A stretch of DNA of 64,000 nt from Maricaulis maris MCS10 (lineage in GTDB: Bacteria; Pseudomonadota; Alphaproteobacteria; Caulobacterales; Maricaulaceae), in assembly GCF_000014745.1 (NCBI RefSeq), contig NC_008347.1:930001-994000 (forward strand), written 5' to 3'. Shown here in pieces: positions 18,080 to 62,825 of this stretch; position 1 is the first letter of the stretch, and each line of letters opens with the position of its first letter. The notes below the pieces were generated by a model. The model worked only from the letters and a program-made list of their open reading frames with translations. It was not told where the DNA came from and did not search any database. Made by a program: the position numbers and the translations under genes.

Positions 18080-18191
18080 GAGCTTGATCTAACACGAGAA
18101 GATTCCTGAAAGGTTGACGGGCGGGAAACCTGGATAGACGGGAAAGAACAGGGACACGTACTGATTTCACGCGCGCCCCGCGCGCGATGAA

Positions 18192-18321
18192 CCATAAATC
18201 CCATGTCAGCCAGCGGGCCGTATCGGGGTATTGAGGTCAAGGGCGGCGCAGCCGCCGCTTCGCGGTTTCACCCTTGAGCTCAATACCCCGATACGGCGAA
18301 CTCCCGGCAAGGGATTTATGG
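18192..18321 (+). repeat. 130-bp palindromic element with variable arms, copy A
   Basis: The outer ends CCATAAATCCC/GGGATTTATGG are perfect complements. The perfect 19-bp arms are GCCGTATCGGGGTATTGAG (18217-18235) and its complement (18279-18297). The 43-bp core runs from GTCAAGGGC to CACCCTTGAG. Orientation is taken from the TCAGCCAGC flank on the left, with the core in forward orientation. Confidence 0.9.
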
Positions 18322-18492
18322 TGCAACAGGCGCGCGGGTGCGCCTGACCTGACGTCGTACCGCCTTCTGTATGACGCTTCTGTACTAACTGAAATTAGTG
18401 CCAGTCCCGGTTATTCCTTTCCAATAAACGGGGACACGTACCGTTTTTCACTAACGCCCCTCTACTCCCCCGCGCCCCCAGCGCAAACCCCA

Positions 18493-18622
18493 CCATAAAC
18501 CGCTTGCCGAGAGTTCGCCGTATCCGGTTCTTCAGGTCAAGGGCGCCGCAGGCGCCGCTCCGCGGTTTCACCCTTGAGCTGAAGAACCGGATACGGCCTG
18601 CTGGCTGACAAGCGATTTATGG
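18493..18622 (-). repeat. 130-bp palindromic element with variable arms, copy B
   Basis: The flanks are inverted relative to copy A. The 19-bp arms are GCCGTATCCGGTTCTTCAG (18517-18535) and its exact complement (18579-18597). The core reads in the same plus-strand direction as in A, so it is inverted relative to its own flanks. Confidence 0.9.
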
Positions 18623-24720: not shown

Positions 24721-24779
24721 AAATGGTGCCAGGCACCGATTAATCCCAACTGCAACGCGGGCGCCGCGCGCGGGGCTGT

Positions 24780-24909
24780 CCATAGATCGCTTGTCAGCCA
24801 GCAGGCCGTATCCGCTTCTTCAGCTCAAGGGTGAAACCGCGAAGCGGCGGCTGCGCCGCCCTTGACCTGAAGAAGCGGATACGGCGAGGTCTCGGCAAGC
24901 GGTTTATGG
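24780..24909 (+). repeat. 130-bp palindromic element with variable arms, copy C
   Basis: The left flank is CCATAGATCGCTTGTCAGCC. The 19-bp arms are GCCGTATCCGCTTCTTCAG (24805-24823) and its exact complement (24867-24885). The 43-bp core is identical to that of copy A but inverted relative to the flanks. Confidence 0.9.
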
Positions 24910-24940: not shown

Positions 24941-24998
24941 GTGGGAATTGTGTCTGTCCCGTTTTTCAGGTGGGAATTGTGTCTGTCCCGTTTTTCAG
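24941..24998 (+). repeat. 29-bp tandem repeat of RAYT/REP type
   Basis: Two exact adjacent copies (24941-24969 and 24970-24998) of a unit starting GTGGGAATTGTGTCTGTCCC. Such phrases commonly surround REP-associated transposase genes, none of which is present here. A related inverted phrase, GGTACGTGTCCCCGG, follows at 25010. Confidence 0.8.
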
Positions 24999-25059
24999 GC
25001 CAGAAACCGGTACGTGTCCCCGGTTTCGGTACCGGTTTTTGGCAATTTGGGAACCAATA

Positions 25060-56799: not shown

Positions 56800-57186
56800 A
56801 TGAGCCGTATCATGTGCAGACTGGAAGAGGATGTCGCCCGGGCCCGCCTGGCCCAGAGCGCCGTGGCTTACGCCTTCGGGATCTCGCAGCGCGAGCTGGA
56901 GGCACCGACCCGGCGATCGCGGGAGGCCGCTCTGGCCAGGCAGGCGGCGATGTATCTGGCCCATGTTGCCTTCGAGCTGCCGCTGACCCGCGTGGCGCTC
57001 GCCTTCGGGCGCGACCGCACGACAGCGGCCCATGCCTGTCATCGCATCGAGGACCGGCGCGATGACCGCGCCTTTGACGACTATATGGACGCGCTGGAAG
57101 CCGCCCTGCGCACCGCGCCGCGACTGAGCGGGCTGCAGCGTCTGGCCGGTCTGGAACGTTTTGAACGCCCGGAGCGCCTGACATGA
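56800..57186 (+). CDS. DnaA domain IV-only DNA-binding protein
   Basis: 128 residues. The central part is the DnaA C-terminal helix-turn-helix: QAAMYLAHVAFELPLTRVAL, then AFGRDRTTAAHACHRIED (68-85), matching the DnaA signature that reads the DnaA box. There is no AAA+ ATPase domain. It may bind DnaA-box-like sites as a regulator of replication or transcription. The stop overlaps the next start by 4 bases. Confidence 0.85.
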   Translation: MSRIMCRLEEDVARARLAQSAVAYAFGISQRELEAPTRRSREAALARQAAMYLAHVAFELPLTRVALAFGRDRTTAAHACHRIEDRRDDRAFDDYMDALEAALRTAPRLSGLQRLAGLERFERPERLT

Positions 57187-62531: not shown

Positions 62532-62659
62532 GCCCTTACATCGCTTGTCAGCCAGCGCGCCAGACGCGATTTGCGAGGTCAAGGGCGCGAAGCGCCGCTG
62601 CGCGGTTACACCCTTGAGCTCGCAAATCGCGTCTGGCCATCTCTCGGCAAGCGATGAAT
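62532..62659 (+). repeat. 130-bp palindromic element with variable arms, copy D
   Basis: Arms GCCAGACGCGATTTGCGAG (62557-62575) and its exact complement (62617-62635), a sequence unrelated to that of A-C beyond the first bases. The core is 41 bp with forward orientation as in copy A. The left flank has CATCGCTTGTCAGCCAGC. Confidence 0.9.
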
Positions 62660-62704
62660 GGGGACGTGGGCGCTGGCGCGCCGTTTCTTGGCTGCAGGTA
62701 CATG

Positions 62705-62825
62705 TCGTCATCCCTGATGGACGCCCGGCGCAGGCCGGGCGAAAGTCAGGGACCTGGCTGGTAGCGACCACTTAGGTCCCTGCCCTGCGTCCGGCCTTCG
62801 CCGGACATCCGGCAGGGATGACAAG
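62705..62825. repeat. Bipartite REP/BIME-like double hairpin, copy 9
   Basis: GTCATCCCTGATGGACGCCC to GGCAGGGATGACAAG. In the right half the outer stem reads CCCTGCC/GGCAGGG, a compensatory change relative to copy 8. Confidence 0.88.

What the first reader, a model, noticed from the sequence alone, without database searches (positions are those of the whole stretch)
18192..18622. 130-bp palindromes with copy-specific perfect arms and a core in both orientations
Four elements (18192, 18493, 24780 and 62532) share outer ends (CCATAAATCGCTTG and complement) and a roughly 43-bp core, but the 19-bp arms between them differ from copy to copy while remaining perfectly complementary inside each copy. 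The arms are GCCGTATCGGGGTATTGAG, GCCGTATCCGGTTCTTCAG, GCCGTATCCGCTTCTTCAG and GCCAGACGCGATTTGCGAG. This is strong covariation, so the folded arm is under selection or is re-copied as a unit. Relative to the outer flanks the core is forward in A and D and reversed in B and C; the cores of A and C are identical when one is inverted. Perfect inverted arms around an invertible core look like a site for DNA inversion or cruciform processing. It could also be a structured RNA with variable specificity.
Basis: seen in the sequence. Interest (0 to 1): 0.85.

Follow-up and report, generated by a model that had tools for sequence, protein, structure and literature searches.

The report
Arm-variable palindromic repeats in Maricaulis
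A marine bacterium carries about forty scattered copies of a 130-base palindrome whose two arms change together and whose centre sometimes flips, which looks like DNA copying itself across the fold of a small mobile repeat rather than a genetic switch.

Summary
The four window copies belong to an intergenic palindrome family with at least 38 intact copies in this genome; by DNA search 14 of 31 genomes carry it, all of one genus (Maricaulis). In 132 copies from six genomes, 96 have perfect 19-bp arms. At the same locus in different species, arms change in Watson-Crick pairs (45 columns in 30 ortholog groups), somewhat more often by transversions, with no G.T preference. The outer stem does not do this (5 columns against 100 with mismatches). 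The core is inverted at a few loci, marked by a junction mismatch that turns with it, but orientation mostly follows two subfamilies. Best reading: a MITE-like repeat of unknown mobiliser whose inner hairpin is re-templated by replication template switching, which mends the arms and occasionally turns the core. A programmed switch and an RNA-pairing cause are not supported. Unexplained: the junction mismatch escapes mending, and copies stay about 92% identical at loci whose flanks are 64-69% identical, so in-place selection is likely too. Relatives with a similar core but different paired arms occur elsewhere in Alphaproteobacteria. New variant of a known kind.

The parts
18192..18321 (+). Copy A, complete element: outer stem 18192-18205/18308-18321, left loop 18206-18216, arms 18217-18235/18279-18297, junction G.G 18236/18278, core 18237-18277 (forward), right loop 18298-18307
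18493..18622 (-). Copy B, complete element on the minus strand; arms 18517-18535/18579-18597, core 18537-18577 (reversed relative to its outer flanks)
24780..24909 (+). Copy C, complete element; arms 24805-24823/24867-24885, core 24825-24865 (reversed; exact reverse complement of the core of A)
62534..62661 (+). Copy D, complete element with divergent but perfect arms 62559-62577/62619-62637, core 62579-62617 (forward)
   Evidence: G006 shares it with one arm base changed
18171..18185 (.). Small GCGC hairpin on the left of copy A, a regular neighbour of the family
   Evidence: GCGC columns conserved just outside the element in 32-34 of 38 copies
18327..18346 (.). Small hairpin on the right of copy A (7-bp stem)
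   Evidence: GCGC columns conserved in 32-36 of 38 copies

Best explanation
This is a MITE-like family of small intergenic palindromic repeats, about 130 bp plus short flanking hairpins, spread by an unknown mobiliser. Its inner part (26 paired bases around a core of two mini-hairpins) folds back on one DNA strand, probably during replication. A polymerase then copies one arm from the other (template switching or quasipalindrome correction). One event therefore rewrites both sides of the stem, so the arms drift in sequence yet stay complementary; an event that crosses the core and returns turns the core in place. Shown: the family, paired arm changes at fixed loci, in-place core inversion at a few loci, no G.U signature, internally deleted forms, a copy missing at its locus in relatives. 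Inferred: that template switching is the cause, that the repeat is mobile, and that some selection keeps copies in place.
For: Arms: 96 of 132 copies perfect over 19 bp, 56 mismatched of 2508 pairs. In 30 ortholog groups, 45 arm columns carry two or more different Watson-Crick pairs and 35 hold a mismatch; 28 of 48 alternative pairs are transversions. The outer stem of the same copies has 5 and 100. In the closest pair, copy A and L031, the only two differences in 130 bp are one complementary arm pair. In 82 close pairs (not independent) arms show 38 paired, 33 single and 3 two-sided unpaired changes; the outer stem 4, 155 and 6. No wobble bias in arms: G.T 11, A.C 16. 9 of 20 changed perfect arms in G000 and G018 occur at no other fetched locus of that genome, so a donor copy is not needed there. 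Core inversion in place: G016_L162 forward, four orthologs reversed, inverted alignment scores 29-35 against 20-22; also copy C with L081 and L110 with L169. Forms of 51-60 bp lacking core and most of the arms, 8 among 144 paired ends, look like deletion at a palindrome. A is missing at its locus in G018 and G015, and in G010 the flanks abut. Arm mismatches are not related to loop changes (p=0.24). Stem fixing and rare whole-loop inversion are both described for template switching in PMC8794818 (discussion read).
Against: The junction mismatch next to the arm is kept in 109 of 132 copies (56 G.G, 53 C.C, 23 G-C, 0 C-G), although its neighbours are mended; simple copying should mend it as well. 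A full-length decayed copy (L052) has many arm mismatches, and arm mismatches rise weakly with outer-stem mismatches (rho 0.18, p=0.03), so mending may fail, or selection lapse, in decaying copies. Single-sided arm changes are almost as frequent as paired ones in close pairs (33 and 38). No autonomous relative and no target-site duplication was found. Orthologous copies are 92% identical where flanks are 64-69% (random floor 58%), which suggests selection in place beyond a passive repeat.
Confidence: 0.53

Rival explanations
1. Selection on a DNA hairpin or cruciform: a host protein reads the folded element (conserved loops, TCAAGGG stem and junction mismatch), and pairing of the arms is kept by selection at each locus, by two separate mutations.
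For: Elements are conserved in place while flanks are not; loops and the TCAAGG/CCTTGA stem are nearly invariant; the junction mismatch is kept and turns with the core (56 of 56 G.G forward, 53 of 53 C.C reversed); single-sided changes do occur.
Against: The closest copies already differ by a complete pair; transversion pairs are common; 5 of 18 related species have no DNA match (some of these assemblies are incomplete), so an essential role is unlikely.
Confidence: 0.24
2. Structured RNA, transcribed in the orientation of the outer flanks, with pairing kept by RNA function.
For: Very stable predicted folds; intergenic; strong covariation.
Against: No G.U preference in the arms; the outer-stem G.T excess (106 against 35 A.C) is below column-shuffle expectation (127 and 47); core found in either orientation; no Rfam family at its gathering score, only two weak sub-threshold matches.
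Confidence: 0.1
3. Re-copying between loci: arms and core are replaced as a unit by gene conversion from other copies.
For: Common arm types recur (61 distinct left arms in 132 copies); 11 of 20 changed arms do have a like elsewhere in the genome; at the L018/L161 locus arms are the same but the core is replaced.
Against: 9 of 20 changed perfect arms have no donor among fetched copies (fetched sets are incomplete); the unusual arms of G018_L120 and G010_L148 differ by one pair only; orthologs (median 92%) resemble each other more than random copies do (81%).
Confidence: 0.08
4. Programmed inversion switch: a site-specific recombinase flips the core between the arms.
For: Core in both orientations, also at one locus between species.
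Against: Orientation is uniform in 25 of 30 ortholog groups and follows subfamily; arms vary between copies, so they make a poor recombinase site. Both orientations at one locus within a strain could not be looked for (one assembly per species).
Confidence: 0.03

Closest known systems
Bacterial MITE-like palindromic repeats (ERIC/IRU, Correia/NEMIS, RUP, RPE)
   Same: About 100-170 bp, tens of copies, mostly intergenic, end-to-end pairing; compared with the table seen in PMC2229807 (passages)
   Different: Outer ends pair imperfectly while an inner arm is variable but nearly always perfect; core found in both orientations; no TSD or autonomous partner found; no blastn match of copy B in 20,395 E. 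coli records
Caulobacter CIR repeats (Chen and Shapiro 2003; paper not held, known here only through PMC2229807, section 7)
   Same: Alphaproteobacterial intergenic repeats of about 110 bp with inverted repeats
   Different: CIRs carry GANTC in an exposed loop and have two arms with a linker; here only 11 of 132 copies hold any GANTC, against 47 in one mononucleotide shuffle, and one central hairpin dominates
REPINs and RAYTs (PMC3116915, search listing only; the RAYT link is recalled)
   Same: Small repeats in inverted pairs that fold as hairpins
   Different: Linked to a Y1 transposase; the window genome has no Y1_Tnp match yet at least 38 copies
Template-switch (quasipalindrome) mutation at hairpins (PMC8794818, abstract, part of the introduction and discussion read)
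   Same: One event makes multi-base compensatory changes and can turn the loop in place
   Different: There described for RNA genes; here a genome-wide DNA repeat family
Parvovirus terminal repeats, flip and flop (recalled)
   Same: T-shaped palindrome with an inner part in two orientations through fold-back copying
   Different: Internal chromosomal repeat, no known nickase or replicating genome

Membership tests
MITE | Short, multicopy, intergenic | tested here: met
   38 of 38 intact copies overlap no predicted gene by more than 60 bp (one overlaps a gene end by 49 bp; home-made gene caller); about 130-170 bp
MITE | Terminal inverted repeats | tested here: met
   14-bp outer stem, 89.8% of cells are standard pairs, G.U included
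MITE | Target-site duplication | tested here: inconclusive
   No clean empty site: the locus of A in G018 differs in its flanks; the locus of L031 in G016 and G015 holds other repeats
MITE | Autonomous element with the same ends | tested here: not met
   Own-genome end pattern (95 matches): those inspected were complete, short, broken or chance matches (about six weak ones not inspected). Of 31 solo left ends in fetched loci, six had a further right end 326-1154 bp away, all six belonging to a neighbouring copy. Fetched flanks of 1.5-2.5 kb could hide a longer element.
MITE | Presence/absence at the same locus | tested here: met
   A present in G000, missing in G018 and G015; in G010 the flanking sequences abut
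REPIN | RAYT (Y1 transposase) in the genome | tested here: not met
   No PF01797 match in G000; 5 of 19 genus genomes have one (G003, G005, G009, G010, G012), with 0 to 42 element matches, while G006, G015, G016 and G018 with 28-48 matches have none
CIR | Conserved GANTC site | tested here: not met
   11 of 132 copies
CIR | Sequence similarity to published CIR1-CIR4 | not testable with these tools
   Original paper not held
ERIC | Sequence similarity | tested here: not met
   No blastn match of copy B in E. coli genomes at E 0.01
Template-switch hairpin | Watson-Crick pair replaced by another pair in place, including transversions | tested here: met
   45 columns in 30 ortholog groups; 28 transversions, 20 transitions
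Template-switch hairpin | Mismatches anywhere in the copied stem are mended | tested here: not met
   Junction mismatch kept in 109 of 132 copies
Template-switch hairpin | Single mutational event observed | not testable with these tools
   Needs mutation-accumulation or within-species data
Structured RNA family in Rfam | Match at the gathering score | tested here: not met
   Only two tRNAs in the window

The most novel reading that the evidence does not exclude
A class-wide family of DNA-hairpin elements that multiply and persist by fold-back copying: a conserved T-shaped core (TCAAGG, two mini-hairpins, CCTTGA) is recognised by shape by an unknown enzyme, arms are rebuilt from one another at each round as in parvovirus ends, and the core flips as a by-product. 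The similar core with wholly different, still paired arms in other Alphaproteobacteria, and the kept junction mismatch, would then be the enzyme's recognition features.
Probability: 0.12. Interest if true: 0.85.

Novelty: new variant of a known kind. Interest (0 to 1): 0.55.

Why it matters
Covariation is normally read as proof of a functional RNA. Here dozens of copies per genome, matched across species by locus, show Watson-Crick covariation without a wobble signature, with in-place loop inversion at a few loci and with a little-corrected outer stem as an internal control. That makes the family a natural test bed for how far replication template switching, rather than selection, writes compensatory changes, and a warning for covariation-based RNA discovery. 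The kept junction mismatch and in-place conservation leave open a real function.

Tried and rejected
Rejected: assembly artefact (same elements at orthologous loci in independent assemblies). RAYT mobilisation. A strand-specific RNA signal in the outer stem: G.T 106 against A.C 35 looked promising, but column shuffles give 127 and 47. CIR identity by GANTC. A hidden autonomous element with the same ends, within the flanks fetched. Plasmid (copy C), E. coli and phage records (copy B): no match. A preference for convergent gene ends: 12 of 34 classifiable copies, against 6 of 20 gaps of at least 130 bp in the window. Literature: no title or abstract start listed (no paper), 62, 63, 67 and 90 describes this family; only CC-licensed PMC papers are held, and I did not open those papers except PMC2229807 and PMC8794818.

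Weak or not followed: an IS110-family element in genome G475 (8 matches; the 7 loci compared fall in two sets of near-identical copies) carries a hairpin that the core model scores at E 1.8e-4; possibly a passenger or chance. Orthologous here means a match of at least 100 bp in both flanks; some pairs may be separate insertions in one gap (copy D with G018_L130, L168 with L097). In the 34-sequence alignment the number of further pair types (62) is not beyond shuffles (58.1; 65 of 500 reach it), unlike the other measures.

Rows dropped: the 38 own-genome copies were found by similarity to copy A and had to keep TCAAGGG/CCCTTGA with at most one change each side and 15 of 20 pairs; of the 40 places only two half copies (L030, L034) fell out. 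L060, a further full-length copy, came later. One search parsed 150 places; 142 had inner lengths of 72-92; 10 of these had fewer than 14 of 19 pairs. By inspection these 10 were spurious hits, half or short copies, one real perfect copy read out of register (L013) and one with an arm deletion (L159). L159 was kept in the ortholog listing and in the orientation and identity counts, but not in the arm counts. So 132 were counted. The cut-off favours paired arms; the decayed full-length copy L052 never entered because its right loop is lost. The loci labelled 'named' are contigs of G006, G015 and G016 under their public names; after relabelling there are six genomes, no copy counted twice and no same-genome pair among the 73.

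Match counts were given as places; they are two-strand counts. Confidence in the best explanation was lowered slightly for the outer-stem correlation.

Full report
Check of the observation. Arms are perfect in all four. The core of A equals the reverse complement of the core of C. Short GCGC hairpins flank the unit on both sides in most copies.

The family. A search of the own genome gave 58 matches, about 40 places because palindromes match on both strands. From loci fetched around them 38 intact copies were parsed; two of the 40 places are half copies. Further places are decayed, short or, in one case (L060), full length. Of 31 genomes searched by DNA, 14 have matches: the own genome and 13 of 18 others of the genus; 5 of 18 and all 12 from other genera have none. 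A pattern scan of named genomes returned 18 stretches, all Maricaulis; contig lengths show that G018 is M. maris DSM 4734. That the window genome is M. maris MCS10 is recalled from its size and not from a call.

Covariation. In the 38 own-genome copies 96.0% of cells pair against 85.5% in shuffles; two-sided changes are 136 cells against 32.7; in the 19 arm pairs no cell shows a one-sided (wobble) change. Pooling G000 (38), G018 (48), G010 (17), G006 (12), G015 (9) and G016 (8) gives 132 copies with arms placed by the flanking loops and with at least 14 of 19 pairs. 96 are perfect; 56 of 2508 pairs are mismatched, with G.T 11 and A.C 16. Eleven of the 19 positions use all four Watson-Crick pairs. 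A different set of 34 sequences, including other families of the order, gives 285 two-sided cells against 76.1 in shuffles.

Change at fixed loci. Matching both flanks gives 73 pairs in 30 ortholog groups. Arms have 45 columns with two or more Watson-Crick pairs in one group and 35 with a mismatch; alternatives are 28 transversions and 20 transitions. The outer stem in the same groups has 5 and 100. Per site, arms differ by 7.5%, loops by 9.8%, outer stem by 10.5% in 71 pairs, so arms change nearly as fast but in pairs. The sharpest case is copy A and its near twin L031: the only two differences in 130 bp are one complementary pair. These facts point to a DNA-level process that rewrites both sides at once. 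Selection through G.U intermediates cannot give the transversions. Against this, single-sided arm changes are about as common as paired ones in close pairs (33 and 38).

Core orientation. The junction is G.G in 56 copies, all with a forward core, C.C in 53, all with a reversed core, and G-C in 23, of either orientation. Orientation goes with a base in the left loop: forward with GG in 58, reversed with AG in 48, the crossed combinations in 11 and 9, seven other (133 copies). So most of the two orientations are two old subfamilies. Yet 5 of 30 ortholog groups are mixed, and in three of them (copy C with L081; G016_L162 with four orthologs; L110 with L169) the cores align much better when one is inverted. 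At the L018 locus the core looks replaced rather than turned. Inversion is thus real but rare.

Mobility and keeping. Copy A is missing at its locus in G018 and G015, which hold B there; in G010 the flanks abut without either. Copy D is shared with G006; G010 holds a remnant, and G018 another copy in the same gap. Eight forms of 51-60 bp lack the core and most of the arms, as palindrome deletion would give. All 38 copies are intergenic by a home-made gene caller, one overlapping a gene end by 49 bp. 24 of 38 lie in one 740-kb stretch (width chosen afterwards), against a maximum of 22 in 2000 uniform simulations. The own genome has no RAYT, and no autonomous element with these ends was found within the flanks fetched. 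Orthologous copies are 92% identical (median) while sequence 25-125 bp outside is 64-69%, with a random floor of 58%. That argues for selection in place and is a main result against a purely passive repeat.

Wider relatives. A covariance model of the whole unit matched 18 of 120 genomes of the order, 7 of them in the genus (counts are on both strands and capped at 28 scored candidates a genome). G003 has at least 19 diverged places, G080 eight, and G060 one full-length match that keeps a G.G junction. A model of arms plus core matched 9 of 385 genomes of the class, the own one included. Three of these matches have perfect, unrelated arms by eye (L276, L277, L278); others have several mismatches. 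E-values from short calibration are rough, so the weaker of these need confirmation.

Mechanism. Fold-back of one strand brings TCAAGGG and CCCTTGA together; the new strand then copies the opposite arm. This mends the arm and would explain why the outer stem, separated by unpaired loops, is not mended. Copying through the loop turns the core. PMC8794818 (abstract, part of the introduction, and discussion read) describes both outcomes for template switching. What the model does not explain is the junction: adjacent arm positions are mended but the junction mismatch is kept in 109 of 132 copies and is never C-G. Selection on that mismatch, or a copying tract that always starts beyond it, are the options; mismatches show no clear trend along the arm, which does not favour the second.

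Verdict. A real and strange property in a new family of a known kind of repeat. The inversion-switch and RNA readings are weakened by direct tests; template switching plus some selection is the best account, at 0.53.

Noticed in passing
window 62707-62824: A second, unrelated palindromic repeat of about 118 bp (GTCATCC...GGATGAC) with many matches in the genus; it has no GANTC here and could be tested for the same arm behaviour.
   Followed up: no
window 18151-18163, 18430-18448, 24724-24745, 24945-25025: Short motifs such as GGGACACGTACCG, GTGTCTGTCCCG and GTGCCAGGCACCGATTAAT recur beside the palindromes, in several copies as neighbours of the outer hairpins.
   Followed up: partly
G000:C1:0.63-1.37 Mb: 24 of 38 intact copies fall in 740 kb of a 3.37-Mb chromosome; the best DnaA match is at 1.2 kb. 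Four ortholog groups map from 0.90-1.13 Mb here to 1.95-1.73 Mb in G010, in reversed order.
   Followed up: partly
window 56854-57048: A second, weaker DnaA C-terminal-domain match in a short open frame (174 aa), also present in G010.
   Followed up: no
G475 loci L282-L303: An IS110-family element of about 1.5 kb (DEDD_Tnp_IS110, Transposase_20) carries a long perfect palindrome with a TCAAGG..CCTTGA core about 60 bp downstream of its transposase frame in L291.
   Followed up: partly
L236-L243 (G080): A related set in another family of the order has its own recurring outer ends (GCCTTACAGGCTTG..) and, in four copies, a T.T or A.A mismatch one step out from the junction.
   Followed up: partly
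L035, L054, L055, L057, L130, L134, L147, L180: Forms of 51-60 bp that keep outer ends but have lost core and most of the arms; in those read closely the join falls at short direct repeats.
   Followed up: partly
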